Assembly (NCBI GenBank): GCA_030280995.1
Contig: JASXTE010000010.1
Coordinates: forward strand, 22,142,823-22,206,822
Origin: Hemileia vastatrix
Lineage: Eukaryota > Basidiomycota > Pucciniomycetes > Pucciniales > Zaghouaniaceae
Direction of reading: 5' to 3'
DNA: 64,000 bases
This document shows, one piece after another, positions 1,084 to 51,607 of this stretch. The notes under the pieces were generated by a model. That model ran no database searches. It was not told where the DNA came from and was given only the letters and a program-made list of their open reading frames with translations. Position numbers and translations under genes: made by a program. Position 1 is the stretch's first letter. Every line of letters starts with the position of its first letter.

Positions 1084-1687
1084 AGGGGGTATCAATGTTT
1101 ACTGATCCACAATTAAATTAATTTCAGATAAAAATCATTATACACCAATTATCTTCCTCAAATATTTTTGCTAATAATTAAGTTATTAGACCTTTTACAT
1201 GTCAATTTTCACCTCTATTTGACATTTTTATTCTCAATTTTTCATAACCACATCTTGGACAACTTTCTGTATGTGCCTGCCTCCCTAACTTGTTGCACAC
1301 TCCCATCCTGTCTATTTATTCTATCCATTCAAAACCCCTCCCCATCTCATCTGTTTATTTCTTCTCCTCTTCATCTTCAAATATATCAACATGCCTCATC
1401 ATCATAGAACTTCTCAAAGGCATCCATCCCCCTGATGTTCTTCAAATCTCCTTACTCCCTCTTTCCCCCTGTCATCTGAGAAATAAAAGACCATTCAACT
1501 ATAAAAAGGTGATCATCTCATACTTATCAACTAGCTGAAAACTAAAACTAATTATGACTCTTGTTTTGATACTGAGAATGCAACTAAATTAAGACATCCC
1601 CCTGCATCAAAAATCAATGGATATCTTCTAATGGTCAATGAATTATGAAATAAGACAAATGGAAGGATTAATATTTGGCCTAAACAG

Positions 1688-2379
1688 ATGTCTGAATGCT
1701 TCAAGCACTATCAAGCCAGATGCAAGAAGGCTGAGACTCTTTCATCTTCCACTGGTTTTGATATTACTGACCTTGATATCAGTAAGTGCATCAAAACTAT
1801 AGACAATAAACTTGATTCTTTATTTACTTACTATAAAGAGATGGATTCCATATTTGGAGAGCAAGCCAATTTTTATCCTACAAAAATTTTGGATGGAGAA
1901 GATAATATTTCCTAACATGATTTCAAAAGAAATCTTTTTCCTTCCACTTCTACTAAATCCTCCCCTCATTTGACTTCCACCAATCAAGAAATCTTTTCAA
2001 TAGATCCTTATGGCAATATAAACCAACCTTACATTACTCCAGTGAGTTTTTATTTCTTTTCTAGTTGTTTTATTTTTTTTATTTCTAATAAGGTTAATGA
2101 ATGAAATGAGGGTCCTCAAGAAATCAAGTCTGAAGCTTGAATAGGAGAAGAAATTTGAGTTTTCTTTAAAGAGGGATGAGAAAGAACATGATTTGGAGGA
2201 GAAGAAATTTGAGATAAAAAAAGTGGAGAAGGCTCTTGAGTACAATTTCCTATTGGATTAAATGAAACTCAAGTATCAACTTGAAGATTAGTCAAAAATG
2301 AAAGTTTTCTTGATAGAATGTGTGAAAACTAATAAAACTGTTGAGGAAATTGAATGCTTAATGAAAATGTTTGATGACT
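1688..2379 (+). pseudogene. Myb/SANT-like transposon protein, decayed copy
   Basis: An open stretch 1688-1915 aligns clearly with the better copy at 18977-20097: SECFKHYQARCKKAETLSSS, then a GFDITDLDISK core, then KEMDSIFGEQAN. This is the layout of the Myb/SANT-like DNA-binding domain that accompanies PIF/Harbinger transposases. The spacer and final helix (GF...D...K...F..MD.IFG) are as expected. A stop at about 1914 ends the frame. Downstream, pieces of the C-terminal coiled coil (LEEKKFEIKK, EKALEYNFLLD, EEIECLMKMF) are still readable to about 2379 but carry several stops. An intron with donor GTGAGT after ACTCCA (about 2042-2092) sits where the intron of the other copy sits. The role would be transposase partner that binds element ends; that is inferred from the family. 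Confidence 0.7.
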
Positions 2380-2484
2380 TGTTTTTTTTATTTCATTCAT
2401 ATTTAATTTCAATTTTTTTTGAAAGTTTTTTTGATAAACTGCATTAAAGCTAATAAATCTGTTGAGGAAATTGACTGCTTAATT

Positions 2485-2704
2485 AAAATGTAGTAAAAAG
2501 AAAACTAAAGGGAGAATTGACATCAATTCTAAGTAAATGCAGGAGAGGTTCAAAAGCTATCAATAAAAATATAAAAAGGCTCATTTTGCTTCCACTTCCA
2601 CTGGCTTTGGTATTGATGATTATGATTTGGAGAATGTAATTACTACTGTTTCCAAAAAGCTCAATGTCATGTATATTCTCAATGAGGAAATGAATATTCT
2701 TTAG
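2485..2704 (+). pseudogene. Second Myb/SANT-like fragment in element 1
   Basis: A second, diverged version of the same domain follows in the same orientation. ERFKSYQ, KYKKAHFASTSTGFGIDDYD and NEEMNIL are readable, with one internal stop after KSYQ and a stop at the end. The spacing of the GFG motif to the EEM motif matches the first fragment. It therefore looks like the product of a second ORF or a tandem duplication within the ancestral element. In the 18431 element the matching region (20409-20700) is only a coiled-coil stretch with stops. Confidence 0.55.
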
Positions 2705-2943
2705 GTTCCAGATTTAATTGTTACTTTTAATCTTATCAAAATTAGTTATATCATGAGATTCTGTTAAAACCATTTTTCTTTACTGGACTCTAAAATATTG
2801 CACTTTTGGAATCTCAGATGTTAAAATAATATTGACTCCTGTGAAAAAACCTCATAACCAACATCATTTTATCACCTCACCACCAATTTTGTATTTATAA
2901 ATAAAGCTAAGTCAAAAAAATTCTATATCTGTTTGAAAAATTT

Positions 2944-3084
2944 GGCAATACCCTCCCCTGTGTTTTATTGAAGCAAGGGGTGGGTATCACCAATTTTTTC
3001 TAAGTCATCAATTTTCCATGTCAGATTTGAAAATTTGGAAATACCCTCCCCTGCATTTTATTGAAGTAAGGGGTGAAAATGACC
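2944..3084. repeat. Tandem GC-richer hairpins of element 1
   Basis: Two short inverted repeats stand in tandem. The arms are GGCAATACCCTCCCCTG (2944-2960) against CAAGGGGTGGGTATCACC (2974-2991), and GGAAATACCCTCCCCTG (3037-3053) against TAAGGGGTGAAAATGACC (3067-3084). Both loops contain TTTTATTGAAG. The same pair is at 20693-20845 and 39152-39297 in the two related elements, so the structure is kept in all three while the surrounding sequence decays. Function is unknown; it may be a nested small element, a terminator or a structured site. Confidence 0.75.
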
Positions 3085-3424
3085 AAAATTTAGAATTATT
3101 CCATAAATTAATAAATAAATAAATAAGATAATTCAAATTCACTAGTTTTTAAGTAATGACAATTCCTCAAGCCAAAATGTGGACCAAGTCTATAAACCAA
3201 GTTTTGGACTTTCCACAGGTATAGGCAAGCTGAACCCCATGAAAAAATTTAATGTTATCATGATTACCTTTTATACAACACAAGTTAATTGGCTCATTAC
3301 TTTAGTTTAGTAAATTGAAATATCAGATTTATTTATTAAAAATTTAAGAAAGAATACAAAAAATTTGATGCCCTTACAAATCCCCAAACTTTTTTTATCT
3401 ACCTAAAGGTCTGTAAATTTATTA

Positions 3425-3485
3425 ATTTTACCATTTTTTTACCTTGTTGATTTGTTGTACTGACTTTAGACTGATCTGATAAGAG
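3425..3485 (-). pseudogene. Remnant of the 2OG-Fe(II) oxygenase C-terminus
   Basis: A short minus-strand stretch reads SYQISLKSVQQINKVKKW. It corresponds to the FQISHKLIQRINKV end of the oxygenase at 39481-40212 and to FQISQKLIHRIKK at 21296-21420. Position and orientation within the element match the other two copies. Nothing else of the enzyme is readable here. Confidence 0.5.
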
Positions 3486-3654
3486 AAGAAAAAACGTGTG
3501 AGGGATAGACATATGAAAATGGTAAGAAAAAGAAAAAAACACAACTTGATGAGAGGGTAAAATAATAGGTAAAGAGAAAGTTATTTTGAGGAATCTGGAA
3601 GGATAAATGCATGATGTAAATTTTATGTTATGAATTATGAAATAAATAAATGTG

Positions 3655-4620
3655 AAGATGGGAAAAAAAGGCTCAACTTTAAAGGTCAATATCTCAGCAA
3701 CTACTGAACCAAAATCTAATTGGTTTTCTGGAAATGAAAGATAGGCTTCAGAAGTATCTTCAGCTAACAGGAAAGTATATTCAAATAAACCTATCCCTAA
3801 TACTGACTCTGATTTTCAAAATTGCACAGAAACTTGAAAACTGATGATGAAAGTTCCAAAAAGAGGGAGATAAAAGCCTAGATAAGCAAAGGAATCTGGA
3901 GAGATAAATGAATGATGTAAATGTTATGATACTCATTATGAAATTAATAAAAGTCAAATTATAAAAAAAAGGCTCACCCTTAAAGGTCAATATCTCAGAA
4001 ACAACTGAACCAAATTCAAATTGGTTTACTGGAAATTAAATATAGGCTTCAGAAGTATCTTCAGTTTAAAGGACAGTTGATTCAAATAAACCTAACTCTA
4101 ATTCTGACTCTACTTTTAAAATTTTCTCAAAAACTTAAAAATTGATGATGAAAAGTCCAAAAAAATAGGAGATAAAAGCTTAGATAATAATCAGATAAGA
4201 GTTTCAGAATCCTTATTCTATAACTATGTAATATAAAAACATGAAATAAGATAAGTTAAATTTGGAAAAAAAGGCTCAACTTAAAAGGTCAAAATCTCAG
4301 CAACCACTGAGCCTAATTCAAACCTGTTTGTGGGAAATGAGAGATAGGCCTTAGCAGAATATTCAGCTAAAGGATATGTGATTTAAATAAAGCTAACCCT
4401 AATTTCTTAAATAAAAAAATGAAATAAAAATTCAAATTGGGAAAAAAAGGCTCAACTTTAACTGTTAATATCTCAGAAACCACTGAACCAAATTCAAATC
4501 TTTTTGTGGGAAATAAAAGGTAGCCTTTAGGAAAATCTTCAGTAAAAATAAGATTAGATTTGAATAAACCTAACCCTAATTCCAAGTCTTATTTTCAACA
4601 TTTTTCAAAAACTTGAAAAG
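3655..4620. repeat. Degenerate tandem repeat of ~180-300 bp in element 1
   Basis: The phrase GGCTCAACTTTAAAGGTCAA followed by a TATCTCAG...CACTGAACC stretch recurs near 3669, 3971, 4271 and 4449. Each unit continues through GAAATGAAAGATAGGCTTCAG to AAACCTAACCCTAATTC. Related units lie at 21566-22200 and 40318-40680. Tandem subterminal repeats of this type could be transposase-binding arrays, which is inference. Confidence 0.8.
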
Positions 4621-6117
4621 ATGTAATGGAGATGAGAACAAAAGGAGTTTAATAAGTTCACTGTTATCCAGATAAGAGTCATAAATATATTTAAATATTA
4701 AATTTTCATAGAAGGAATGAGATATCATATAGGCATGAAGAAAAAGAGATGGAACTTACCTTTATTGAAAAGTAGGAAAAATAGAATGAGAAAGATTGAT
4801 GTTGGAATTGTGGGGAAATTGAATATGGAGTAAGTGAAATGCATTAAGAATGAGCAATGTATGTGTTTTAAGGACATGGAACCAAAAAAAAGTGAGATAT
4901 GGGAAAGAGAGGATAATGACCATTACAAGGAGGGATGAAGAGTAGGGTGATGGAGCTAAAAAATAAGTTAAAGAGGGAGAGAAAAAAAGGTTAATTTTAC
5001 CATAAAAATCAAAAATAACCACTTACAAAAAAAATTAGATACAAAAAAGAAAAAAAAACAGAAAAAAAAACAAAAAAAACCATAATTAGAAATCAAAAAA
5101 TTAAAAAAATTAATTAAATGACTTACCTGGAGAGATGAGATGAAAAAATAAAAAAAACCAAATTGTTTGAGGGATGCTTGAGGAGAGGAGGATAGGATAT
5201 GAAGGATGAATGAAAAAAAACAGTGAAAAATTATTCAATTGCAGAAAATATGTGATTTCATGTTAAGCTGGTGAATGAAAACAAATGAGACATCCAAAAA
5301 AGAGACATTCAGTGTAATTTCAAAACAAAATTAATATGCAAAAAAAAAAAACACCAAACCAAGTGAATAAAGCACACAAGCTGAAAATATGGAGAGTATG
5401 AAAAAAAAAATTGAATGGGTTGTGTTTTTAAAATTTTTGAGGGTGATTGGCATAATGACAGAGCCTATTCTGGTGGAAAGAATGTTTTGTGATTCAAGTG
5501 AGGGGAGATCTGGTGCAGTTTGGAGATCCTCTTCTTCATAAAGATCATTGAAAAGGCATATAAGCTAAATTGTCTTCCAAACCCAAGTCAGAATTAGAGT
5601 CAGCAGCTAAAGTTGAAGTGATAGCATTCATAGCTAAGTGAAGTTGCTTCCTAGTAGAGAGATGCTTTATTATTGTCGGGAGAAGTTTTAGGTGATGAGT
5701 GGGAAGTGGGAATTCACCATCAAATGAGCAGGTGGGGTGTGTAGATAGAAAAAAATTTTATGTGCTTGCCACCCAAAATAAAGTAGCATAAAGTGAAGAG
5801 AATCATAAGGATGAGAGAAAATATTATGTGTTTGCCACCAAAATTAAGTAGCATAGAGTGAAGAGACACATAAAGATGGCATCCACAATTCTATGTCATT
5901 GAATTGCTTACAAATCAATCATGGATGTGATGAGTTTGGTATCAGGAATTAAGAATGGAAATTGGGGTATAAGAGGTGGGATTATGCATTATTGTGTAAT
6001 CCTTATCCACTATCCCTGGGACTAATGGATAAGAATTATCCGTAATTAATAATTTCTGATCCTTGCAAAAAAAATTCCTGATCCCTAATTGCAGATCCCT
6101 GAACATTGATACCCCCT
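4621..6117. other. Right subterminal region of element 1, no gene seen
   Basis: AT-rich, purine-rich on + in 4700-5400, with many A-runs. No protein family is recognisable. The last ~170 bases match the right end of element 2 on both sides of its retrotransposon insertion, so 5960-5990 is an empty site for that insertion (see findings). Confidence 0.6.
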
Positions 6118-18430: not shown

Positions 18431-18976
18431 AGAGGGTATCAATGTTGACTGATCCGCAATTAAATTGATTGCAGATAAAAATCATTATACCCCAATTATC
18501 TTCAACAATTATTTTTGCTATTAATTGGGTTATTAGAACTTTTACATGTCAATGTTCATCTCTATCTCACATTTTTAAACTCAATTTTTTATAACCATAT
18601 CTTGTACAACTTTCTGGATGTGCCAGCCTACCTACCTTTCTGCACACTCCCATCATGTCTATTCATTTCCATTAAAAACCTCTCCCCATCTCATCTGTTT
18701 TTTTTCTTCTACTTTTTATTTTCAAATATCTCAACATGCCCCATCATCATAGATCTTCTTAAAGGCAGCCTTCCCCCAGGTGTTCTTCAAATCCTGTTAC
18801 TCACTCTTTCCCCTTCTCAGCTGAGAAATCAAAGACTTTTCAACTAAAAAAAGGTTGGTCATCTCATACTTATCAACTGGCTGAAAATAAAAACTAATTA
18901 TGATTCTTGTTTTGGTACTGAGAATGCAACTAAAGTAGGAAGGCCCTCTGCATCAAAAGTCAATGGCTATCTTCTA

Positions 18977-20097
18977 ATGGCCAATGTATTACAAAATAAG
19001 AAAAAGGGAAGGTTTGATCTTTTACATAAACAGATGTCTGAACATTTCAAGAATTACCAAGCCAAATACAATAAGACAAAGACTCTTTCATTTTATAATG
19101 GTTTTGGTATTACTGACATTGATATCAGTAAGGGCATAAAATTCATAGATGATAAACTTGAATCTCTATGTCTATACTTTAAAGAGATGGATGCTATTTT
19201 TGGAGAGAAAGCTGATTTTAATCCTGCCAACATGTTGGATGTTGAAGATTCTATCTCCAAACATGATGTCAAAAGAAATATTTTCCCTTCCTCTTCCTCC
19301 ACTCAAGCCTCCCCTGTTCTAAATTCAATGAATCTAGATAGCTTTCCAATAGATACTTATGGTGATATAAACCAACATGATCCCACTCCAGTAATTTTTT
19401 ATTTTTTGTCTAGTTATTTTGTTTTTTTTATTTCTAAAAAGGCTAATGAACAAACCCAGGATCCTCAAGCAAGTGAGTCTAAAGCTAGCATCAATGATGA
19501 AGAGGAAAATTTTACCTCCAAAAAAAAGGAAAGACAATCAACTACTTTGAATTTCAACAGTCATAGAAAGAAAAACAGAGATAGTATTTCCCAAACCCCT
19601 TTTTCTTCCATGGATGATTTTCTGGAGAAACATGAATCTGGTAAGTGATAGCATACCTCTTAATCATTAAGTGAGCTTTTATTTTTCTTTTGTTAATATT
19701 CCTTTTCACTCTAGGTAAAGTTGAAGATGAAAGAGATACTCTCATCTTTCAAAAGAAAAAATATGAGCTCTCTTCACAAATAGATGATAGGGCACAAGAC
19801 TTGGAGGAGAAGAAATTCAAGCTTTCTTTACAGAGGAATGGGAGGGTACAAGACTTGGAGGAGAAGAAATTTGAGCTTTTTTTAAAGAGGCATGAGAGGG
19901 CAAATGACTTGGAGGTGAAGAAATTCAAGATAAAGAAAGGGGAGAAGGCTCTAGAGTACAATTTCCTATTGGATCAAATGAAACTTAAGTATCAACTTGA
20001 AGATGGTTCAAAAAAGAAATATTTCTTGAGAGAATTTGTTAAAGCTAATAAATCTATTGAGGAAATTGAATGCTTAATGAAAATTTTTTATAACTAG
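18977..20097 (+). CDS. Myb/SANT-like protein of the Harbinger-like element
   Basis: Three exons are proposed: 18977-19390, 19442-19640 and 19715-20097. Introns are 51 bases (GTAATT...AAAAG, a multiple of three, so it stays open if unspliced) and 74 bases (GTAAGT...CTCTAG), giving about 331 residues. The N-terminal part (residues ~20-85) reads MSEHFKNYQAKYNKTKTLS, GFGITDIDISKG and KEMDAIFGEKAD, the layout of Myb/SANT-like DNA-binding domains that partner PIF/Harbinger transposases. The C-terminal half is a charged coiled coil with three diverged DLEEKKF repeats (LEEKKFKLSLQ, LEEKKFELFLK, LEVKKFKIKKG), ending EEIECLMKIFYN. In-frame text continues upstream of the chosen Met (GRPSASKVNGYLL) until a frame break near 18896, so the true start may be further 5'. 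Predicted role: binds element ends and aids transposase import; this is inferred from the family. Confidence 0.6.
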
Positions 20098-21290
20098 TTT
20101 TTTTTATTATTTTTAGAAAGTTTTCTTGATAGAATGCATTCAAGATAAAAATCAATCATTGGCACACACTCCTCACTGAGATGTGAAAAATTTTATTGCA
20201 ACATGTTAGATTATTTGTGTGTTTGGTTAAATAAATTTTGTTTTATTTATTTTTAGTAATAATTTCATATGTGCTGACTTTTTAAAGATCTTGATTCTAG
20301 TCAATTTTTTTTTGCAAAAATTTGAAAAACTCATACATTTTTTATTTTTTTTATGATTAAAGAATTTTTCTTAATTTAATTCTCTTACTCTTAAAATTTA
20401 AACTTGTTTCAGAAAAAGAACAAGCTCAAATTGAAATCATGAATTTGGAGTCTCACTAAAAAACTGCAGAACTTCAACTAATTTTTGAGGAAAAGAAGTG
20501 GTTTCATTCACAATCAAAGGAAGAATAATTTTTAGAAATTGAGAAATATTTTTTAGATTTGGAGAGGGAGAAGGTTAGGATTCAAAGAGAGAATGATGAA
20601 AAATTCAAAAATAGTCAATTTCAATTGGAAAACACCAAAATTCAGTTACAAGCCAATGAATTAAAAATGATTTATGTCAAAAAAATATTTTTGGCAATAC
20701 CCTCCCCTGCTATTTAGCTTAACAGGGGGTGGGGCAACCATTTTTTTTTCTAAGTCAGAAAAAAAATTTATGACAAAAAAATGGCAATACCCTCCCATGT
20801 GTTTTATTGAAGTAGGGGCATAGATTGCCAAAATTTATGTTCATTGCATATATTAGCATGTAAAAAAGTCTTATAAGATAATTTACAAACCTAAATTAAT
20901 AAAAATTCAAGTAAAAGTGTGAGGGGGAATTGTCTGTGACTGAAGTCGATGAAATCAAACACAAATGTATACATGAACCTCATGAGAAAAACAAATTTCC
21001 TCATGATTACCATTATACAACACACAGCTGATGGCTCATTAATTTAGGTAAGTAGAGTATCATATATGACTTTTAAAATGTTAATTTTTGAAATAAAAAT
21101 AAAATTTGACAACCTATATTACACCCCATACTTTTACTTTCTATTTAATGTTTTTTGTTTTACCTCAACTTTTTCTCATACCTTATCAATCCTATTGACC
21201 AGCTCCCTATTGATTTGAAAAGAAAAGCCAAAGTGAGTAAATTTCTTCACAGTATTTTTAAAGTTTTTATTATTTGTTAAATTTACCATC
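20098..21290. other. Middle of element 2: coiled-coil remnant and hairpins
   Basis: At 20409-20700 the + strand reads a charged helical remnant (EKEQAQIEIMNLES, FLDLEREKVRIQRENDEKF) with two stops. It is the likely C-terminus of a second Myb-like ORF, as in element 1 at 2485. Two tandem hairpins (GGCAATACCCTCCCCTG against GGGGGTGGGGCAACC, and the next pair to 20845) follow. The rest is AT-rich with no gene. Confidence 0.5.
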
Positions 21291-21425
21291 TTTTTTTACT
21301 TTTTTATTCTGTGGATTAATTTTTGACTGATTTGAAATGAACATCCAAAATGTGTGAACTCTTGAAAAGATTCCAAGCCAGGTGGAGCTTTAGTTGTTTG
21401 GTGATGAACTTGAGAACTTATTTTT
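21291..21425 (-). pseudogene. Remnant of 2OG-Fe(II) oxygenase C-terminus in element 2
   Basis: About 40 residues are readable on the minus strand: HHQTTKAPPGLESFQEFTHF then GCSFQISQKLIHRIKK. This matches residue for residue most of the end of the oxygenase at 39481-40212 (NHQTTKALPGLESCQHLTHF then GCSFQISHKLIQRINK). The distal metal-binding His context (HQTT) is kept. The N-terminal two thirds, including the HxD motif, is not recognisable, so this copy is a fragment. Confidence 0.72.
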
Positions 21426-21565
21426 AAGTAAAGAACAGATGCAAATGGAAATAAAATGAGTGACACTATTTTAAGAATGAAACACATATTATCAGACATA
21501 CCAAGAGAATAGGCTTTAACAAATCCTGGTCTAAACATGAAATAAATTAAATGAAATTTAGAAAA

Positions 21566-23587
21566 AAAGCTCAACTTTAAAGGTCAATATCTCAGCAACC
21601 ACTGAACCAAATTCAAATACATACATGGGTAATGAAAGATAGGCTTCAGAATAATATTCAGCTAAAAGAAAATAAGATTTGAATAAACCTAACCCTGATT
21701 TTGACTCTGATTTTAAAAATAGCACAAAAATTTGAAAATTGATGATGAAAATTCCAACAAGATGGAGATATAAGCTTAGATAATCATCAGATAGGAGTTT
21801 CAGAAGATTTTTTCTCTAATTATGAAATATAAAAAGATAAAACAAATTAAGTAACATTTGGAAAAAAAGGCTCAACTTTTAAGGTCAAAATCTCAGAAAC
21901 TACTTAACCAAATTCAAACTGTTTGTGTGAAATAAAATATAGGCTTCAGGAGAATCTTCAGTTAAAGGAAATGTGATTTAATGAAAACTAAGCCTAATTT
22001 TTTACATAAAAATATGAAATAAAAAAAATTAAATTGGGAAAAAAGGCTCAAATTTAAAGGTCAATATCTCAGCCGCCACTGAACCAAATTCAAATCTGTT
22101 TGTGGGAAATAAAAGGAAGCCTTCAGGAGAATCTTCAGTAAAGAGAAAAATGGATTTGAATAAATCTAACCTTAATTCTGAGTCTGATTTTCAAAACTTT
22201 ACAAAAACTTAAAAAGTGGTAATGGAGATGCAAACAAAAAGAGTTTAATAAGTCCACTGTTATCCAGATTAGAGTCATGCATATATTTAAGTATGATATT
22301 TTCATAGAAGGAAAGAGATATCATTTATTTATAAAAAAAGGAGATGAAACTTACCTTGATTGAAAAGTAGGAAAAATAGAGCGAGAAAGAATGATGTTGG
22401 AATTTGGGGAAAATTGAATATGGAGTAAGTGAAATGCATAAATAATCTGCAAGGTATGTGTTTTAATGACATGGAACCAAAAAAAAGTTAAATAGGGGAA
22501 CAGGGGGGATGATGGCCATGCCAAGGAGGAATGATGAATAGGGTGATGAAGCTAAAAAAGAAAGAAAAGAGGGAAGAGAAAAAAAGGTTAATTTTACAAT
22601 AAAAATTAAAAATAACCACTTACAAAAAAAATTTAGATACAAAAAAGAAAGAAAAAACAGAAAAAAAACAAAAAATATATAATTAGCAATCAAAAAATCA
22701 AAAAAATGAATAAAATGACTTACCTGGAGAGATTAGATGAGAAAATAAATGAAACCAAATAGTTTGAGGGATGTTGGAGGAGAAGAGGAAAAGGATAAGA
22801 GGGATGGATGAAAAAAATGAAGAGTTAAAAAATTATGCAATCACTGAAAATATGCAATTTAATGTTGAGCTGGTGAATGAAAACAAATGAGACATCCAAA
22901 AAAGAGACATTCAGCGTAAATCAAAAATAAAAATGAATATGCAAAATAAAAACACCAAACCAAGTGAAAAAAGCACAGAAGTTAAACATTTGGAAAGTAT
23001 GAAAAAAAATTAAAAGGGTTGTGTTTCAAAATGTTGGAGGGTGGTTGGCATAATGACATAGCATATGCTGGTGGAAAAAATGTTTTTTGATTCAAGGGAG
23101 GGGAGAGCTGGTGCAGGTCTGGGATTCTATTCTTCATAAATATCATTGAAAAGACATGTAATCTAAAGTGTCTTCCAAGCCAGAGTCAGCAGCTAAACCT
23201 AAAGTGATGGCATTCATAGCTGTGTGAAGTTGCTTCCTAGTTGAGAGGTGCTTCAATATTGTTGGTAGAAAAGGTTGTTAGTAGAAAGTTTAGGTGAAGA
23301 GTGGGAAGTGGGAATTCACCACCAAATAAGCAGATGTGGTGTTAAGATAGAAAAAAATTTTATGTGTTTTCCACATATAAAATTAAGTATCATAGAGTGA
23401 GGAGACACATAAAGATGAGAATAAACGTTATGTTTTTGCCACCAAAATTAAGTATCATAGAGTGATTAGATACATAAGGATGGCATCCACAATTATATGT
23501 CATGTGACTTACTTACAAATAAATCATGGATGTGATGAGTTTGGGATCAGGAATTAGGAACAGAAATTGGGGTATAAGAGGTGGGAT
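21566..23587. repeat. Tandem repeats and right body of element 2
   Basis: Repeat units starting GGCTCAACTTTAAAGGTCAA lie near 21569, 21869 and 22046 and match those of elements 1 and 3. From 22200 to 23587 the sequence is collinear with 4640-5990 of element 1. No gene was recognised. It ends at the target duplication GGGAT (23583-23587) of gypsy copy C. Confidence 0.75.
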
Positions 23588-24764
23588 TGTCAGTTTATGT
23601 TAGTATCTAATATGATTTAATAGTAAATATTAATGGTCCTACTACTTATTGTTAAATGATTTAGTGATTAAACCTCAGGGGAAGACTAATAAAATACTTA
23701 TTATCAATACAAACTGACAATACTTGGATTTTATGTGTGCTAGTGGTGGAAAATAGAATAATAAAGTATAGTTATAGCTTATATAAAGATAATATCAACT
23801 TATTAATGCTTTATAATATATTTCTATATGATAATAATTGTTTTATAATGTTTTTTTAATTTTTAGTAAGTAAGTGATGATTATAACCTGTCAAAATTCC
23901 CCTTACTTATACTAAAATCCATTGGAGTGCACAGACCTTCAATCCAGATGATGTCACTTCCATCCCTGGAAATTACAGAACTGTGAGGGTCCATCACCTC
24001 CCCATGGCTTCCACTTCAAGAAGTTTCAACACTCAGACCTCCAGTAAGGACCCTCCATCACAATTAATGATACCACAGACCCATACCATAAATAGAATAG
24101 ACTGATAAAAGCAGATACCATAAAGAAACAGGTAAAATAACTCATCCAAAGAGTATATAATGAAACGCAAAGCACATAAAGGAACCAAATTAACTTTCCC
24201 AGCCCCCAATAACATCCCCAAGCATCCATATTAACCCAGTAACCATATCCCAACCCATAAATCCGTGAAAATCCATCCAAGGAAGCAGATCAAGTTGTCC
24301 AAACTGGATATATGCGCCTGAAATAGGTGTATATGCTTGTGTAGGCGTTGTGAGTCCACTGGATACGTCCATATGACCTAAAATAAGCAGAAAAATAAAG
24401 TTTATAGGCTATCAAGAGGTTAAAACCCACTTATAGACCTAAATAAACATAATATAACTACATATTTCACTGAATATGAGGTTTATGTATACATATAAGC
24501 TTATGTATGTAAATAATTACTTAATATCACTTAAGATAAATATATTATGACTCCATTAACACCTTAATAAGTATTATTAGGCTATGGATAAGCTATTTAA
24601 ACTACTATAAGTCATATAATGGTGTAATAATTATATATATGTATGTATTATAACCATATATATAAGTATTTTAACCTTATTCTTAAGTTATAAGCTTAAT
24701 GTAATTAAGATTATCTTATTTTAAACATAAGAATTACTCATTCCTGGAGATACCTAGTCTGACA
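23588..24764 (-). repeat. 3' LTR of gypsy copy C
   Basis: On the + strand it starts TGTCAGTTTATGTTAGTATC and ends GATACCTAGTCTGACA, so it begins TG and ends CA in either reading. It is 1177 bases against 1179 in the other LTR. No gene lies in it; open frames near 24030-24370 are compositional and recur in the other LTR. Confidence 0.92.
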
Positions 24765-34410: not shown

Positions 34411-37166
34411 AGGGGGTGTCAAAAATTACCATATATTCCTGGAGGAATTCAGTCTCAAAACCCCATTCAAAGACACCATCATAAATAGCTGACTTGGGAT
34501 TATACATGTCAAAAATGAGGTCAAATACTTCCTACGTTTGCACCACTTCCCAACCACAATTAAGCCCCCAAATCTACTGCATATCAAATGCTTTTTCTTT
34601 CACTATCATCTCCTGAATTTCTTATGCTCCTTTTTTTTCTGAGGTGAGTCCTTTTTCTCTTTTTTTACTGTGTTCTACCTTCCTAATTTCCATTTTTGTC
34701 ATTTAAACTGACACTTTTTCTTTATCATCTCTTGACTATCTTTCTCACCCTTTTTTTTCAAGGTAAGTCCTTTTTTATCTTCTCTTTCTGTGCAACATTC
34801 AGGTCCCCTTCCCTCCTTCCTCTTACTTCCAACCCCTCCACTTCCCTCTCACCTCAATTCCCTCCCCTCTTGGCTCAATCTCCTCCCCTCCCCTCCCCCT
34901 TCCTCTCACTTCCAACCTCTCTCCTCTCTTCTCCTACCTTCCACTTTTCCCTCTTGCCTCTATCCCCTCCCCTTTCCTTTTCTCTTGCTTCCAACCCCTT
35001 TCCTCCCTTCTCCTCCCCTCCACATCCCTCTTGTCTCAATCCACTCTCTTTACTCTTGCTTCTGAACCCTCTCCTCTCCTCTCCTCTCAATTGTGTGTAG
35101 TATTTTAAAAATAAGAATTTGTATAAAATGTTTGATAAGAAATTCTAAAGTAGTGACACCAAATAAATACAGATTTGAGGAAATCCAATGAAATAAATCA
35201 AAGATATCAAACCTTCTAATTTCATTCACATGTTTTTTGAATATAACTTTGAAAAAATGCATAACAAATATATCATAAGTAAAAGAATGGATTAAAATTT
35301 GTCATTAACATCACATTTATTGTAGTGTAGCAAGAAGCTTGAAGATATATGTAGAATCAAAATGAAAAAAATAAAAATTAGATAAAATAAAACAAAACTT
35401 TATATTACAAAAATCAATGTGAATTTTTGGTTTTCTGTGCACAGAACCCATTACTTTATATTATGTTTTCTATGTGAAAGCTTAAGTGATTTTTTTATAA
35501 ATAAACTTTAAAGTTATTCAATAAAATTAATTTTTAAAATAATAGCTAAATATTTACAGATTGACTTATTATTTGGCTTCAAAAAGAAATTTTTTTTACA
35601 GAAAAGTGTAAAGACTTGTTTTTTGAATTATGTTCTCATTCATTTATCTCATAATTATTTATTTAGTATTACTTTCAATTATAATTCTTTTGATTTTCTT
35701 CAGAGAGAGGAAAGAGAAGGAGAAGGGGGTGGATGTAAGGGGAAAGGAGAGGAGGGGAGGAGAGGGGAAGGGGAAGGGGAAGGGGAAGGGGAAGGGGAAG
35801 GGGAAGGGGAAGGGGAAGGGGAAGGGGAAGGGGAAGGGGAAGGGGAAGGGGAAGGGGAAGGGGAAGGGGAAGGGGAAGGGGAAGGGGAAGGGGAAGGGGA
35901 AGGGGAAGGGGAAGGGGAAGGGGAAGGGGAAGGGGAAGGGGAAGGGGAAGGGGAAGGGGAAGGGGAAGGGGAAGGGGAAGGGGAAGGGGAAGGGGAAGGG
36001 GAAGGGGAAGGGGAAGGGGAAGGGGAAGGGGAAGGGGAAGGGGAAGGGGAAGGGGAAGGGGAAGGGGAAGGGGAAGGGGAAGGGGAAGGGGAAGGGGAAG
36101 GGGAAGGGGAAGGGGAAGGGGAAGGGGAAGGGGAAGGGGAAGGGGAAGGGGAAGGGGAAGGGGAAGGGGAAGGGGAAGGGGAAGGGGAAGGGGAAGGGGA
36201 AGGGGAAGGGGAAGGGGAAGGGGAAGGGGAAGGGGAAGGGGAAGGGGAAGGGGAAGGGGAAGGGGAAGGGGAAGGGGAAGGGGAAGGGGAAGGGGAAGGG
36301 GAAGGGGAAGGGGAAGGGGAAGGGGAAGGGGAAGGGGAAGGGGAAGGGGAAGGGGAAGGGGAAGGGGAAGGGGAAGGGGAAGGGGAAGGGGATGGGGAAG
36401 GGGTTCGAAGGGTGGGTTAGTGAGATGGAGCACAGAAAAAGTAGAGAAAAAAGGAGACACCTAATAAAAAAGGAGAAGAATATAGTCAGGAGATGATAAA
36501 GAAAAAATGTCATTTTAAAAGACAAAAATAAAAAGTGGGATTAATCAGTGATTAAGAGGCAGTGGAGGATAAGAACTACTGGAAAAAGAGGCAGGTGTAA
36601 GTTTGTGATTTTAAGGAGGGGAAGATAAAGGTGAACAAAGGCTCAGTCCAGAGGGGAGGGCAGGTTCAGAGATGGTGAGTAGCAATTTAAAATTATCACA
36701 AGTAGTGAGATCAACCAGGGTCACTTTATGGTAAAAACTTGAGCCATGGCAAGAGTTACAAACCAGTATATAAAAATCACTATCACTATGCACCAAGTAA
36801 GATATCCCTGATAGGGATATCCAGCACAAGTTAGGAATATTTTATGAAGGGACATAAGGTCAGAAAAGTAAATGTAAGAAAAGTAAGTGCAAGAAAAATA
36901 AGTTTGAGAAAAGTGACACCCTTAAGGATTAGGTGAAGAAAAACTTTTAAGGTATGGGCATGTGTGTACCTAATGCTGACTAATCAAGTTGAGGGGAAGA
37001 AGTGCTTGAGGGGCTTGGATGTACCCAACAGATGGAATGTGTAGGGAAAAGCACACTCTTGAAGTATACCAGTTAATGGGGTGTGTAATTCAAATTAAAA
37101 TGACTTGCTTGGTACCTTTTTTGAGGCTTGCTTGAATGGCATATATGGTAATGTTTGACACCCCCT
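34411..37166. mobile_element. Foldback-like non-autonomous TIR element with hexanucleotide expansion
   Basis: The ends are inverted repeats AGGGGGTGTCAAAAATTACC (left) and AGGGGGTGTCAAACATTACC (right, read inward), sharing the first ten bases with element 3. Longer arms are recognisable: GACACTTTTTCTTTATCATC at 34710 faces GACATTTTTTCTTTATCATC (minus strand) at 36490-36510. A C/T-rich tract (34795-35090) faces the G/A-rich hexamer array. The flanks are CTT and ATT. No protein is encoded; long frames over the arrays are compositional. Confidence 0.7.
35764..36391. repeat. (GGGGAA)n array, about 105 perfect copies
   Basis: 628 bases of uninterrupted GGGGAA hexamer, followed by one variant GGGGAT unit and two further partial copies to about 36404. 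Every frame is open on both strands (Gly-Glu, Gly-Lys, Pro-Phe or Pro-Leu dipeptides), so the apparent long proteins are artefacts. Runs of four G every six bases can form quadruplexes or purine triplexes. The lack of any point change over 600 bases implies very recent expansion or an assembly effect. Confidence 0.97.
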
Positions 37167-37846: not shown

Positions 37847-38451
37847 GTGGATGATTGTTGACAAAATGTCAGGTTGCACCATATCATTTTTTTGTATTCA
37901 AATTCTTTTTTAAATTTTAGCAGGTGAATTTTTCGCTTGCTTAATCATCAGGGTTGACATTCTCACAACATGTTCACTGCATTAGATCTCAATCATGTAA
38001 TATCTTACTATTACTACACTTGAAAATATGAAATTATCTACATGAAATTTTCAATTTGGCAGTTGCCCTTACATGAAAGGAATCTGAAATAAAAAAAGTA
38101 AGAAATATCAATAAAGTCCATTACTAGATTTATAGTAGATATTAGGGGGTGTCAGTTCTGGCAAATCCGCACTTACAAATCCGCACTTAAATTTGACCAA
38201 ATCCGCACTTAAATAAGTGCGGATTTCCAAAACACACTAGCCCCAATACTGGTGGATTTCAAAATGAAATAAGTCACTTATTTCACTCAAATCCGCACTT
38301 TCTCAACCAAAAGTGCTGATTTCACCATCAAGTCCCATTTCACTGATTTGTCAGCATCATCCCATTCATACGCAGCACTCCGCAGCATAACACTTCATAA
38401 CTCAAAACATCGTACATCACTTACATCTTCATATCATATCATATAAGAGTT

Positions 38452-39111
38452 ATGCCTTCCTCACTTTCAAATCGTGATAAATTACATAAAGCAAGGACTT
38501 TCATGGCTCTTGAACTGCTCTTGGACTCTGATTGCAATTCTGATTCTGATCTAGAAGAAGATTTTGTCTTTTTATCAAAAATGGCCATGAAACGTTACCT
38601 TCTTCCCAGAAAGCCTCAAGTACTTCATACCCCCAAGTACACCATCCAAACACTTCTTAAACTATCTACACCCAGTTTTAGACAGCTGTTCAGGACTTCT
38701 CAGGAATGTTTCCTTAAATTGCTTGAGCTTATTCAGGATCATCCCATATTTCACAATAATTCTCAAAAAGAACAACAACATCCTTCAATTCAATTGGCCA
38801 TCACACTATGTCATTTGGGTTCAAATGGTAATGGAGCCACTTTGAAACGTTTAGAAAATGTCTTTGATTTAGGGTATGGTTCAGTTAACACTTATACCAA
38901 ACCATGTATCACTGCCATCAACTCCTTGTAATCTCAACTTCTCACCTGGCCAACAAAAGAAGAGCGACTTGAATCATCTCAGGTTATGCAAGCAGAGGGC
39001 TTCCCAGGATGTATTGGTTTTGTTGATGGTACTGCTATTCCTTTGAGCCAGAAACCTGCTCAAGGTGGAAACAATTACTTTCACATTCTCGTCAAAAATT
39101 TTCACCAAAAT
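38452..39111 (+). pseudogene. PIF/Harbinger DDE transposase, N-terminal half
   Basis: The Met at 38452 opens a frame reading through MAMKRYLLPRKPQVLHTPKY, the helix-turn-helix-like part (TPSFRQLFRTSQECFLKLLE, LAITLCHLGSNGNGATLKRL, VFDLGYGSVNTYTK) and, after a TAA at 38929-38931, the same frame continues to EGFPGCIGFVDGTAIPLSQK and GGNNYF. VDGT holds the first catalytic Asp (codon 39025-39027, about residue 192). The family then needs a second Asp and a Glu. Instead homology stops at about 39095 and the sequence joins the non-coding block shared with elements 1 and 2. The enzyme is thus truncated by deletion and cannot be active. The family cuts and pastes DNA with 3-base target duplications. 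Confidence 0.85.
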
Positions 39112-39480
39112 ATTTACAAGTCAAAAAAATTCTATATCTGTTTTAAAAAATTGGCAATACTCTCCCCTGCATTTTATTGAAGCAAGGGGTGGATATCACC
39201 AAAATTTTTCTAAGTCATCAATTTCACATGTCAGATTTGAAAATTTGGCAATACCCCCCCCTGCATTTTATTGAAGTAAGTGGTGGAAGTCATCTAAATT
39301 TAATATAATTACATAAATTATTAAATAAATATCTAATATATATCAATTTCCCTAGTTTAAAGTAATGACAATCCCTTAAGCCAAAATGCAGATCAAATCT
39401 AGAAACAAAAGTTTGGGACTTTCCACAGGTATAGGCTAGAGGAACCCCATGAAACAAATAAATGTTATCATGATTACCAT

Positions 39481-40212
39481 TTATACAACACAAGGTCGTG
39501 GGCCCATTACTTTAGTTGAGGAAATTGATACATAAAAAATATTTATTAAAAATTTACGAAAAAATATAAAATTTTCAATGACCAGTCTAATCCCCATACT
39601 TTTTGGATCTAAATAAAGTTTTTTTAATCGATTAACTTTACCTTCTTTCATTACCTTATTGATTCTTTGAATCAACTTATGACTGATTTGAAATGAGCAA
39701 CCAAAATGTGTTAAATGTTGACAGGATTCCAAACCAGGAAGAGCTTTGGTCGTTTGATGATTATCCTTAGAAGAATTCCAAATAGTTTCGATGATACCAT
39801 TTCCCAAACTAAAATCAATGATGCACCGGTGGTCTGGAAAATATAAACCATGTAATTTGATTTTAGCTGGAGATGGTATTGGTTGGCCAGTAATCGGTTT
39901 GATATATGAGAATATACCAAAAGTAAGAAAATTGGTGTCCTTGGTATCAGTGTGAATTTTATTGTGAAATCCAGAATGAGTGATAATAACATTAGAAAAT
40001 AAAAGATATTCGTGGCTGATATCTTCCCATTCGGAGTCACACTAATTCGGTATTCCAACTTTGGTTGCAAGTTCATGATTTTTTTCAAATGCTTTATTAC
40101 AGTGCTTTTTGAGTCGAAGAGCAAGAAAAGAGTTAAAGGAAGGTAGAGTGTCCCATAAGCAAAAATCTTCATCTTTTTGAGCTTTAGTGATATTCTTGAG
40201 CAACGAATACAT
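39481..40212 (-). pseudogene. TET/JBP-related 2OG-Fe(II) dioxygenase, transposon-borne
   Basis: On the minus strand a Met at 40210-40212 starts YSLLKNITKAQKDEDFCLWD, with FNSFLALRLKKHCNKAFEKN and a TAG at 40042-40044. The same frame then stays open for about 187 residues: EWEDISHEYLLFSNVIITHS, GFHNKIHTDTKDTNFLTFGI, HGLYFPDHRCIIDFSLGNGI, IWNSSKDNHQTTKALPG and THFGCSFQISHKLIQRI. HTD (39946-39954) is the iron-binding HxD, and the His in NHQTT (39757-39759) is the distal iron ligand. The order HxD, Phe-Pro, IDF, H-T fits the double-stranded beta-helix of the rust-expanded 2OG-Fe(II) oxygenase family related to TET/JBP. I recognise it by motif memory, not by search. TET/JBP relatives oxidise methylated pyrimidines in DNA; the substrate here is unknown. 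Only one nonsense codon is visible within the domain. Confidence 0.7.
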
Positions 40213-41907
40213 GCCTATATAATTGAAATGCCTAGATAATAATCATATAAGAGTTTCAGAATCCTTATCCTCTAAATATGCAATATAAAAATGTGAAATA
40301 AGACAAGTGAAATTCGGAAAAAAGGCTCAACTTCAAAGGTCAAAATCTCAGCAACCACTGAACCTAATTCATACCTGTTTGAGGGAAATGAAAGATATGC
40401 TTTAGTAGAATCTTCAGTTAAAGGACATGTGATTTAAATAAACCTAACCCTAATTTGTTACATAAAAAAATGAAATAAAAATTTAAATTGGGAAAAAAAA
40501 GGCTCAACTTTAATGGTCAATATCTCAGCAACCACTGAATCAAATTCAAATCTGTTTGTGGGAAATGAAAGGTAGCCTTCAGGAGAATCTTCAGTTAAAA
40601 GAACATTAGATTTGAATAAACCTAACCCTAATTCCGAGTCTGATTTTCAAAATTTTACAAAAACTTGAAAAGTGGTAATGAAGATGAGATCAAAAGGAGT
40701 TTTATAAGTTCACTGTTATCCAGATAAGAGTCATACATATATTTAAGTATGAACTTTTCATAAAAGGAATGAGATATCATATAGGCATGAAAAAAAGGAG
40801 ATGAAACTTACCTTGATTGAAAAGTAGGAAAAATAGAGTGAGAAAGATTGATGTTGGAATTGTGGGGAAATTGAATATGGAGTAAGTGAAATGCATAAAG
40901 AATGTGCAATGTATGTGTTTCAATGAAATGGAGCCAAAAAAAAGTGAAATAAGGGAAAGGGGGGATAATGACCATGCCAAGGAGGGATGAAGAGTAGGGT
41001 GATGGAGCTAAAAAAGAAAGTAAAGAGGGAGAGAAAAAAAAGGTTAATTATAACATTGAAATCCAAAATAACCACTTACAAAAAAAATTTAGATAAAAAA
41101 AATAAAATAAACAGAAAAAAACAAAAAAAAATTATAATTAGTAATCAAAAAATCAAAAAAAAAGAATAAAGTGACTTACCTGGAGAGATGAGATGACAAA
41201 ATGAATGAAACCAAATTGTTTGAGGGATGTTGGAGGAGAATAGGAAAAGGATATGAGGGATGAATGAAAAAAAAAATCACTGACAAAATATGCAATTTCA
41301 GAAAATATGCGATTTCATGTTGAGCTGGTGAAAGAAAACCAATGAGCCATCCAAAAAAAAAAAAATTCACCGTAAATTCCAAAAAAAATGAATATGCAAC
41401 AAACCAAAATACCAACCCAAGTGAATGAAGTACACAAAGAGGACATTTGGAGAGTACAAAATGGTATGGGAAAGAAAGGGATGATGTGGCCAACATGTGG
41501 TTTTGAAAAAAAAATCACGAAAAAAGTGCTGATTTGAGGTCAGAACTGACACCCATAGAAAAAAGATTAAGAAGTAGAAGAAATAAGTAAAAAAGAATGT
41601 AAACATGCCTGGTCAAAATATTGAAAATGTCAGGAAGGGGTGTGTGCCGAGGATTGATGGGTAGGTAGCGAGGAAGGTCAGTGTGTCACATGTGACAGGG
41701 ATGGGGTAAGAAAGGAAGGGATGTTTTGTGGCCAAAATGTGGTTGTGAAAAAAAACGGGAAAAAAGTGCTGATTTGAGGTCATAACTGACACCCTTTTTT
41801 GAAATAAGTGACTTTTTTGCAAAATTTAAGTGCTGATTTGTAAGTGCTGATTTGGTTTGAAATCCGCACTTAAGTTAAGTGCGGATTTGCCAGAACTGAC
41901 ACCCCCT
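40213..41907. repeat. Right body of element 3: tandem repeats and duplicated terminus
   Basis: Repeat units (GGCTCAACTT...GGTCAA) lie near 40323 and 40501. A purine-rich block (40790-41170) is collinear with 4740-5130 and 22340-22730. Two extra partial copies of the right terminus follow, at 41455-41550 and 41690-41797. No gene. Confidence 0.75.
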
Positions 41908-46451: not shown

Positions 46452-46456
46452 GGAAC

Positions 46457-46646
46457 TATGATAGCAACGTCAGTGCTGTCTCCGGAGTGAACCAATAATA
46501 TTTCATTCTAACATACCTATGATAGCAACGTCAGTGCTGTCTCCGGAGTGAACCGGAGATAATACGACGAAGTATCATAGGTTTATATACTTCTCTATGT
46601 ACATAACACATAATATCGCTAAGTCTATGTCTGCCTAGTCATAACA
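46457..46646 (-). repeat. 3' LTR of the copia element
   Basis: On the coding strand it begins TGTTATGACTAGGCAGAC and ends GTTGCTATCATA. It contains a direct duplication: the phrase TATGATAGCAACGTCAGTGC plus TGTCTCCGGAGTGAACC occurs twice, ~62 bases apart, on the + strand. It also contains the inner palindrome CTCCGGAG, and an ATATAAAC promoter-like box on the coding strand. It is identical to the 5' LTR. Confidence 0.96.
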
Positions 46647-46674
46647 CCCCCCCTCTTAGCGATTTTCCCACTAC

Positions 46675-51165: not shown

Positions 51166-51417
51166 GAATTAAATGCCGGCGTGGTTAGGATGAATAGTAG
51201 AATTCTGTGGCAAGGATTAGTTGACCACGACGAGATTAAAGGGAGATGGAGTATGCGCCAAGAGTTAGTTGAACACAAAAAAAATTGTTGAATTGTGAAT
51301 GCCGATGATTAGTGGGCACCACTTCAGGCACGTTTAACGTGGGACAAACACGGGATTCACACTTGCTTCCGAGAGAATAATACAAGAACTTCAATTGTTC
51401 AGGGACGGCCCATAACC

Positions 51418-51607
51418 TATGATAGCAACGTCAGTGCTGTCTCCGGAGTGAACCAATAATATTTCATTCTAACATACCTATGATAGCAACGTCAGTGCTG
51501 TCTCCGGAGTGAACCGGAGATAATACGACGAAGTATCATAGGTTTATATACTTCTCTATGTACATAACACATAATATCGCTAAGTCTATGTCTGCCTAGT
51601 CATAACA
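51418..51607 (-). repeat. 5' LTR of the copia element
   Basis: Identical to the 3' LTR including its internal duplication. Directly inside on the coding strand is GGTTATGGGCCGTCCCTGAA (51398-51417), where the tRNA primer site should be; the tRNA is not identified. Confidence 0.95.

What the first reader, a model, noticed from the sequence alone, without database searches (positions are those of the whole stretch)
39481..40212. A TET/JBP-related dioxygenase carried by a Harbinger-like DNA transposon
The minus strand of element 3 encodes, with only one stop inside the domain, a 2OG-Fe(II) dioxygenase with HxD (HTD, 39946-39954), a distal His (NHQTT) and the IDF/FGCS context of the rust-expanded oxygenases. 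Fragments of the same enzyme sit at the same place in elements 1 and 2. TET/JBP relatives in basidiomycetes are known to travel with KDZ transposons. Here the carrier has AGGGGGTRTCA ends, 3-base duplications, a DDE piece with VDGT, and Myb/SANT-like partners, so it looks PIF/Harbinger-like. A mobile element carrying an enzyme that could erase DNA methylation from itself would be an anti-silencing device.
Basis: partly seen in the sequence, partly recalled or inferred. Interest (0 to 1): 0.9.

Follow-up and report, generated by a model that had tools for sequence, protein, structure and literature searches.

The report
Rust transposons carrying TET-like oxygenase genes
A large family of jumping genes in a rust fungus carries its own gene for an enzyme of the type that removes DNA-methylation marks; such carriers were described in 2025, but here they run to thousands of copies, and the copy in this window is a dead hybrid of two families that has itself spread widely.

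Summary
Minus strand 40218-39682 is a Tet-like 2OG-Fe(II) oxygenase (PF20515, E 5.9e-17; HTD and distal His kept; one in-frame stop) inside a 3764-bp PIF/Harbinger-like element with AGGGGGTGTCA ends and a 3-bp duplication. The assembly (747.6 Mb, unnamed, evidently a rust) holds 10,570 exact AGGGGGTGTCA and 17,230 AGGGGGTATCA ends (reversed-pattern controls 95 and 99). Of 20 such elements taken in order along one contig, 6 hold near-complete transposase, oxygenase and a weakly Myb-like protein. Between two families the oxygenase is under purifying selection like the transposase (dN/dS 0.09 against 0.10-0.11). The elements show C-to-T decay at CpG, as expected if they are methylated. So anti-silencing is plausible, but enzyme activity is untested. 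The window's element is not a working copy: it is a chimera of family A ends and a 2.35-kb family B oxygenase cassette (95.6%); its junction 20-mer occurs 1,054 times. Transposase and oxygenase trees conflict, so cassettes move between families. TET-bearing Harbinger elements in rusts, and the anti-silencing idea, are already in print (Kojima 2025, PMC12730594). Different here: 3-bp AWT duplications instead of TA, a weak Myb match, the scale, and a recent swap with both breakpoints.

The parts
38144..41907 (+). Element 3: chimeric, non-autonomous PIF/Harbinger-like element, ends AGGGGGTGTCAGTTCTGGCAAATCCGCACTTA, ATT flanks
   Evidence: Ends; 32-bp perfect terminal inverted repeat; identity to L009 98.8% and L019 96.5% over its full length, L026 97.5% from offset 55, L013 96.4% over offsets 55-3413; 3-bp flanks
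38144..39084 (+). Family A part, left: terminal repeat and transposase exon 1 (ATG at 38452, stop at 38929-38931; VDGT inside)
   Evidence: 95.2% to family A element L020; 86.7% aa to the L022 exon-1 frame
39085..39101 (.). Left chimera junction, about 15 bp that match neither parent
   Evidence: Alignment; junction 20-mers in 5 of 5 chimeric copies and in none of the other loci compared (L003 and L004, which overlap L009, were left out)
39102..41456 (-). Family B cassette: hairpin-rich 3' region, oxygenase gene, 5' block
   Evidence: 95.6% over 2359 bp to family B element L061, against about 80%, 74% or no match to family A
39118..39302 (.). Two 91-nt repeats, each able to form a hairpin (by eye), between the converging transposase and oxygenase genes; also in elements 1 and 2
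   Evidence: Family D4
39682..40218 (-). Tet-like 2OG-Fe(II) oxygenase, C-terminal three quarters of the domain; HTD 39946-39954, distal His 39757-39759, in-frame stop 40042-40044
   Evidence: PF20515 E 5.9e-17; 78.8% aa to residues 190-368 of the open L020 frame; 83% to the open L061 frame
40226..41456 (-). 5' block of the oxygenase gene with tandem repeats of about 177 and 300 nt; function unknown, probably leader/intron/promoter (inference)
   Evidence: 88% to element 1, 86% to element 2; repeat families D1-D3
41470..41907 (+). Family A part, right: subterminal repeat and terminal repeat of the third-gene side
   Evidence: 41557-41907 is 97.7% to L020; 41470-41554 is 86%
1084..6117 (+). Element 1: decayed family B element, ends AGGGGGTATCA, ATT flanks, in a gypsy-type retrotransposon; pieces of third gene (+), oxygenase 3' trace (-), transposase-side end on the right
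   Evidence: (empty site)
18431..23595 (+). Element 2: decayed family B element, worn left end, right end lost; open third-gene frame 18848-19645 and coiled-coil frame 19675-20094 (+), oxygenase fragment 21418-21299 (-)
34411..37166 (+). Element 4: non-autonomous relative of another family (ends AGGGGGTGTCAAA..ATTACCATATA, as in L028); no matching 3-bp duplication

Best explanation
Element 3 is a dead, chimeric member of a superfamily of three-gene PIF/Harbinger-like transposons that has multiplied to thousands of copies in a rust genome. A working element would encode (1) a two-exon DDE_Tnp_4 transposase, (2) a Tet-like oxygenase, and (3) a probable Myb/SANT-like DNA-binding partner with a coiled coil, between AGGGGGTNTCA ends, and would duplicate a 3-bp AWT target. 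Most likely mechanism: the host methylates the elements at CpG, which silences them and lets C decay to T; the element's oxygenase oxidises 5-methylcytosine on element DNA, which keeps some copies expressed and so transposing. The oxygenase gene is a cassette that passes between families. One swap put a family B cassette between family A ends; that chimera, with its oxygenase already broken or soon broken, spread in trans to about a thousand copies, and the window holds one of them. Shown: domains, association, duplication, chimerism, copy number, purifying selection between families, CpG decay. Inferred: methylation itself, enzyme activity, targeting to own DNA, benefit to transposition.
For: Oxygenase family. 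Three genes in one element: near-complete in 6 of 20 sampled elements (L016, L017, L020, L021, L022, L024); also family B L060 and L061 and L063, with ends AGGGGGTCTCA and AAT flanks. Oxygenase in 13 of the 20, counting a piece in L012 and L014's diverged one. Open full-length oxygenase frames: 25 of 111 scored copies have no internal stop (counted from its table; one is the query itself; the scored copies are the best-scoring ones). Catalytic H-D-H kept in 32 of 42 copies that cover all three sites, 30 of the 42 being the best PF20515 hits. Selection between families A and B: TET dN/dS 0.09, transposase 0.11 and 0.10, third protein 0.18. Copy number. Target duplication: 18 of 20 sampled elements, exactly 3 bp and ATT or AAT each time, plus one empty site. 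CpG decay: C-to-T per CpG site 0.33 against 0.036 per other C in the chimeric class, 0.25 against 0.065 in the three-gene class; CpG o/e 0.03-0.05 in elements 1 and 2, 0.32 in element 3, 0.60 in the neighbouring Uso1 gene. Chimera. Cassette exchange: transposase of L064 groups with L060/L061 (support 100/100), while the TET data reject that clade (AU p 0.0014); L064's transposase and oxygenase stretches are colinear with family B; L014, family A-like at its ends and transposase, holds another oxygenase type.
Against: No activity, methylation or expression data. Among recent copies the oxygenase's dN/dS is 0.72-0.84, not below the transposase's 0.56-0.67, so selection within young copies is not visible. 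Five of five chimeric copies read have a broken oxygenase, yet their junction 20-mer occurs 1,054 times: an intact oxygenase in cis seems not to be needed to spread. The open family B frame of L061 has Asn in place of the catalytic Asp (HIN). Element L062 has an open transposase and third-gene frame but no recognisable oxygenase. dS between A and B is high (1.4 for TET; undefined in 7 and 10 of 12 pairs for the two transposase exons), so the ratios are rough. CpG depletion is not special to TET carriers: a gypsy copy has o/e 0.08 and element 4 0.02. The structure model of the window frame is weak (mean pLDDT 58) and its fold matches are inconclusive. None of the six three-gene elements has all frames open. 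L064's own ends were not found.
Confidence: 0.65

Rival explanations
1. Passenger: the oxygenase gives the element no benefit; it was captured once and is carried along by linkage.
For: The chimeric class amplified (junction 20-mer 1,054 times) although 5 of 5 copies read have a broken oxygenase; L062 lacks it; L061's frame lost the catalytic Asp; dN/dS among young copies is 0.7-0.8, and 0.69 within the chimeric class.
Against: Between families A and B dN/dS is 0.09, as low as for the transposase; frames without stops in 25 of 111 scored copies; three different oxygenase types in the same gene slot suggest that having one matters.
Confidence: 0.13
2. The oxygenase does not erase silencing but makes another DNA change: a hypermodified base such as the 5gmC of CMD1, or oxidation of 6mA, used to mark or regulate the element's own ends.
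For: Tet-like enzymes vary in product: CMD1 makes 5gmC and CcTET also acts on 6mA (Kojima 2025, section 3.4); CMD1, CcTET and NgTET are among the weak fold matches; Kojima states that another activity cannot be excluded.
Against: No direct evidence; the CpG-specific decay of the elements fits a 5mC-based conflict.
Confidence: 0.17
3. Chance: a host oxygenase gene happened to be hit by transposons, with no carriage.
For: None found.
Against: Oxygenase in 13 of 20 sampled elements, inside exact ends, 18 of the 20 with 3-bp duplications; 1,054 occurrences of one junction 20-mer.
Confidence: 0.01

Closest known systems
TET+ PHISTA Harbinger elements of rusts (Kojima 2025, PMC12730594)
   Same: Harbinger-type transposase, TET/JBP oxygenase and a third protein in one DNA transposon of Pucciniales, including Austropuccinia psidii; proposed to escape methylation silencing; oxygenase genes pass between transposon lineages, with no signature at the ends of the shared stretches in the pairs he compared.
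   Different: PHISTA is defined by TA duplications and third proteins without Myb/SANT. Here duplications are 3 bp (AWT), although every flank also reads T|A..T|A, so the two calls are easily confused; and the third protein has a sub-threshold Myb/SANT match. Kojima's closest shared pair is about 80% identical; the swap here is 95.6%. Copy numbers are not given in the parts of the paper read or word-searched.
Nuwa lineage of PIF/Harbinger (as described in Kojima 2025 after Han et al.)
   Same: 3-bp duplications; transposase plus a DNA-binding protein.
   Different: Nuwa encode two proteins and no oxygenase. No Nuwa sequence was at hand for a tree.
TET+ Dileera/Kyakuja/Zisupton (KDZ) and other TET+ lineages
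   Same: DNA transposons of fungi with TET/JBP genes.
   Different: Other transposase types; 8-bp duplications in the Dileera element Zisupton-1_PGr (Kojima).
O181_016336 (P0001), A. psidii MF-1, Tet-like 2OG-Fe(II) oxygenase
   Same: Nearest named protein to the window frame: 47% over 72%.
   Different: Another species; its carrier was not examined.

Membership tests
PIF/Harbinger superfamily | DDE_Tnp_4-type transposase | tested here: met
   PF13359 E 2.9e-25 (L020 exon 2), 5.8e-26 (L062 open 454-aa frame); the window copy has exon 1 only
PIF/Harbinger superfamily | 3-bp target duplication (canonical TWA, recalled) | tested here: met
   3 bp in 18 of 20 sampled elements and by an empty site, but the triplet is AWT beside an A..T end, not TWA
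PIF/Harbinger superfamily | Myb/SANT-like second protein | tested here: inconclusive
   Myb_DNA-bind_4 in 6 of 7, best E 7.6e-4, 20.3 bits against cut-off 27; L063 0.42; structure model unusable
PHISTA (Kojima 2025) | TET/JBP gene with Harbinger-type transposase and a third protein | tested here: met
PHISTA (Kojima 2025) | TA target duplications | tested here: not met
   3-bp AWT; the empty site has one ATT where a TA model needs ATTATT (one site); in 18 of 20 elements the flanking triplets agree
PHISTA (Kojima 2025) | Transposase inside the PHISTA clade | not tested
   No reference PHISTA or Nuwa sequences available; supplementary files could not be read
Tet-like 2OG-Fe(II) oxygenase (PF20515) | Profile match above cut-off | tested here: met
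   Window frame 62.8 bits, L020 103, L061 101, L064 118.2, L014 40.1; cut-off 27
Tet-like 2OG-Fe(II) oxygenase (PF20515) | HxD...H iron-binding triad | tested here: met
   Present in the window copy and in 32 of 42 copies covering the sites; not in L061
Tet-like 2OG-Fe(II) oxygenase (PF20515) | Fold of TET/CcTET/NgTET | tested here: inconclusive
DNA demethylase (function) | Oxidation of 5mC | not testable with these tools
   Needs biochemistry

The most novel reading that the evidence does not exclude
The oxygenase slot of these Harbinger elements is an exchangeable anti-silencing cassette: related families (transposases 55-65% identical) hold oxygenases 80% identical, while elements with transposases about 80-92% identical hold oxygenases only 58% identical or of another type, because cassettes are swapped by template switching during repair. 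Full-length elements keep a working oxygenase under selection, and non-autonomous chimeras that carry a broken one spread by using both the transposase and the demethylated state supplied in trans. The TA duplications reported for PHISTA may be 3-bp AWT duplications read short, which would place TET+ Harbingers in or next to Nuwa.
Probability: 0.35. Interest if true: 0.68.

Novelty: new variant of a known kind. Interest (0 to 1): 0.55.

Why it matters
If the reading holds, one fungal genome carries thousands of transposon copies that encode, or once encoded, an enzyme against their own silencing, with intact, broken, swapped and absent oxygenases in otherwise similar elements. That natural series makes a question that has stayed at the level of inference directly testable: does a transposon-borne TET protect its own copy, its whole family, or everything? 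Long reads that record base modifications could answer it without new experiments. It also bears on how rust genomes grew so large.

Tried and rejected
Chance insertion was rejected. TA duplications were considered because every flank reads T|A..T|A, and rejected by the empty site and the matching triplets. An intact window copy was rejected. The idea that the window is Austropuccinia psidii was dropped: the best A. psidii protein is only 47% identical. A comparison of L064's third protein was dropped: that piece lies in a second element starting at L064:7238, not in the element of its transposase and oxygenase.

Led nowhere: NCBIfam; PDB sequence search with the oxygenase profile, two matches at E 0.55 and 1.4, and with the third protein, three at 0.08 or weaker; protein search with element 2's third protein, no hit at 0.001 among 174 candidates; structure of the third protein, pLDDT 40; Foldseek of the window oxygenase frame, no match at 0.001. 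Whether the canonical 2OG-anchoring Arg is missing in this type (HFGCS in its place; the RxS motif is recalled) was not settled. Counts of two oxygenase 20-mers did not complete (tool busy to the end). One of the four AGGGGGTATCA regions fetched, L059, held copia-like frames and no hit to the three genes.

Literature: searches (terms listed there; two searches returned no papers). Kojima 2025 was the only paper in those listings whose title or shown abstract treats TET on several DNA transposon lineages of rusts; only part 1 of its Discussion was read. PMC12210899: passages only. All others: search listing only. Iyer et al. 2014 was not seen; it is known here only through Kojima.

Full report
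WHAT IS THERE. The frame at window 40041-39484, minus strand, matches Pfam PF20515 (Tet-like 2OG-Fe(II) oxygenase) with E 5.9e-17. The named protein relatives found are from rust fungi: Austropuccinia psidii (47% over 72%), Puccinia sorghi, P. graminis; three others have no name. The window lies in an unnamed assembly of 747.6 Mb, evidently a rust. The terminal 11-mer occurs six times in the window against 0.03 expected and bounds three elements: 1084-6117, 34411-37166 and 38144-41907; a fourth, worn one starts near 18431.

THE CARRIER. One search listed the first 100 of 10,570 exact AGGGGGTGTCA places; by eye 34 pairs face each other within 10 kb, and I fetched the first 20 of these 34 in chromosome order. 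Searching them with window pieces and then with the best frames: transposase exon 1 in 20 of 20 (only 31 residues in L012, 37% identity in L028), oxygenase in 12 of 20 (58 residues in L012), the third gene in 13 of 20 (41 and 71 residues in L010 and L015). L014 carries a further, diverged oxygenase (PF20515 E 5.3e-10), so 13 of 20 have one. Six (L016, L017, L020, L021, L022, L024) hold near-complete transposase exons 1 and 2, oxygenase and third gene. Order in L020: transposase then oxygenase on one strand, third gene converging. Transposase exon 2 is DDE_Tnp_4, E 2.9e-25; the oxygenase frame of 368 aa is PF20515, E 2.9e-29. None of the six has every frame open, but single exons are open in single copies: oxygenase and the first exon of the third gene in L020, transposase exon 1 in L022, and in family B a 454-aa transposase frame in L062.

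TARGET DUPLICATION. Flanks of the 20 elements: 18 carry an identical 3-bp repeat, ATT or AAT, not longer. L025 (composite) and L028 (another family) do not, nor does window element 4; window elements 1 and 3 do. Of four AGGGGGTATCA regions, L060 and L061 do and L059 and L062 do not. L063 has AAT on both sides. A 2-bp TA reading would also fit every flank, but the retrotransposon paralogue at 27163-27165 shows the uninterrupted target with one ATT, where a TA model needs ATTATT. Kojima reports TA for PHISTA; his figures and tables were not available, so whether the two differ or were read differently is open.

NUMBERS. Exact ends: AGGGGGTGTCA 5266+5304 (reversed control 49+46); AGGGGGTATCA 8690+8540 (53+46), which include paired ends about 190-200 bp apart, probable MITEs; the 20-base family A end 3323+3345 (0+0); a 20-mer over the transposase's catalytic Glu 878+877 (0+0). 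PF20515 gave 10,849 first-look candidates; the tool scored 150 and all 150 passed the cut-off. With the L020 oxygenase, 17,253 candidates, 111 scored, 25 of these without an internal stop by my count of the table, the query included. The scored rows are the best ones, so the intact share among all copies is lower.

THE WINDOW COPY IS A CHIMERA. Element 3 is 95.2% identical to family A (L020) over 38144-39084 and 97.7% over 41557-41907, but its middle, 39102-41456, is 95.6% identical over 2359 bp to family B element L061 and only about 80%, 74%, or not alignable, to family A. Relative to its ends the cassette is inverted compared with L020. The junctions show no inverted repeat or duplication by eye, and about 15 bp of unmatched sequence on the left, which suits template switching in repair (inference). 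L009, L013, L019 and L026, 4 of the 20 sampled elements, share both junctions and are 96.4-98.8% identical to element 3 (L013 has a gap near its right end). The right-junction 20-mer occurs 552+502 times in the genome (control 0+0); within the 20 sampled elements its listed places fall in exactly those four. All five chimeric copies read have at least one stop in the oxygenase, none of them shared by all five. So a single hybrid arose, transposed with transposase supplied in trans (inference), and reached about a thousand copies, in the five read without an intact oxygenase.

CASSETTE EXCHANGE IS OLDER TOO. Protein identities: L061 and L064 have transposases 92% (91 residues) and 82% (186) identical but oxygenases 58%; L061 and family A L020 have transposases 56-62%, third proteins 52%, oxygenases 80%; the complete third family L063 is 60-67% (transposase) and 60% (oxygenase) to L020. 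The transposase tree groups L064 with L060/L061 (100/100) and rejects family A plus L060/L061 without L064 and L063 (AU p 2e-55); the oxygenase tree rejects L060+L061+L064 as a clade (AU p 0.0014). These trees have 10 and 12 rows chosen by me; L028, L063 and L064 are long branches in the oxygenase tree. L064's transposase, oxygenase and 3' stretches are colinear with family B, but its own ends were not found and another element starts at L064:7238. L014, 80-83% to family A in exon 1, has the diverged oxygenase in the opposite orientation. L062 has no recognisable oxygenase.

SELECTION. Between families A and B: oxygenase dN/dS 0.09 (8 pairs, 178 codons, dS 1.42), transposase 0.11 and 0.10 (12 pairs each, dS undefined in 7 and 10), third protein 0.18 (12 pairs, undefined in 3). 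Oxygenase synonymous differences (0.64) are fewer than in the transposase and third gene (0.73-0.75), which fits later sharing but is near saturation. Within three-gene copies dN/dS is 0.84 for the oxygenase (0.72 in a set of 11 copies) and 0.56-0.67 for the transposase exons and third protein; in the chimeric class it is 0.69 for the oxygenase and 1.18 for transposase exon 1 at very low divergence. So selection is seen between families, not among young copies. The catalytic triad is kept in 32 of 42 copies that cover it, but L061's open frame has Asn for the catalytic Asp.

METHYLATION TRACE. In the chimeric class (5 copies) single C-to-T changes hit 19 of about 58 CpG sites but 42 of about 1,172 other C sites (0.33 against 0.036); in the three-gene class (5 copies) 0.25 against 0.065. 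CpG observed/expected is 0.03-0.05 in elements 1 and 2, 0.02 in element 4, 0.08 in a gypsy copy, 0.19-0.33 in the ten younger elements, 0.60 in the neighbouring Uso1/p115 gene (named) and 0.78 in a young copia element. This is what 5mC deamination leaves; methylation was not measured. It also means the elements are not fully protected, and that repeats without a TET gene decay too.

KNOWN AND NEW. TET+ Harbinger elements in rusts, passage of TET genes between DNA transposons and the anti-silencing idea are all in Kojima 2025. New here, as far as the searches and the read parts of Kojima show: 3-bp AWT duplications with an empty site, a third protein with a weak Myb/SANT match, copy numbers in the thousands, purifying selection on the oxygenase as strong as on the transposase, and a recent swap caught with both breakpoints and about a thousand descendants. 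After checking, the confidence in the best explanation was set at 0.65 (0.66 before) and that of the passenger rival at 0.13 (0.12 before), because L061's frame lacks the catalytic Asp.

Noticed in passing
window 35763-36403: AGGGGA/GGGGAA hexamer array, 106.8 copies at 99% match, inside element 4.
   Followed up: no
window 46456-51607: Copia-type retrotransposon with an open frame of about 1,496 aa (RVT_2 E 5.2e-59) and 191-bp ends identical in both copies, CpG o/e 0.78: probably a recent insertion.
   Followed up: partly
window 43568-44746: Host gene for a Uso1/p115-like vesicle tether (PF04869 E 2.7e-32); the match begins about 2 kb from element 3's right end.
   Followed up: partly
window 40204-40764, 3634-4712, 21532-22308: Tandem units of about 177 and 300 nt in the 5' block of the oxygenase gene, kept in elements 1, 2 and 3; role unknown.
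   Followed up: no
window 2909-3092, 20658-20838, 39118-39302: Paired hairpin-like repeats between the converging genes in all three elements; possibly shared transcript ends.
   Followed up: no
G000:C2:2277276-2277290 and 3297388-3297402: AGGGGGTGTCA and AGGGGGTATCA ends lying exactly 3 bp apart, as if one element used the other's duplicated triplet as its target.
   Followed up: no
L014:2050-2672: A family A-like element whose oxygenase is another, diverged type (PF20515 E 5.3e-10) in the opposite orientation; its frame has Arg residues after the distal His where the others read HFGCS.
   Followed up: partly
G000:C2, e.g. 1749061-1749255, 1902453-1902652: Paired AGGGGGTATCA ends about 190-200 bp apart: probable MITEs of family B.
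   Followed up: no
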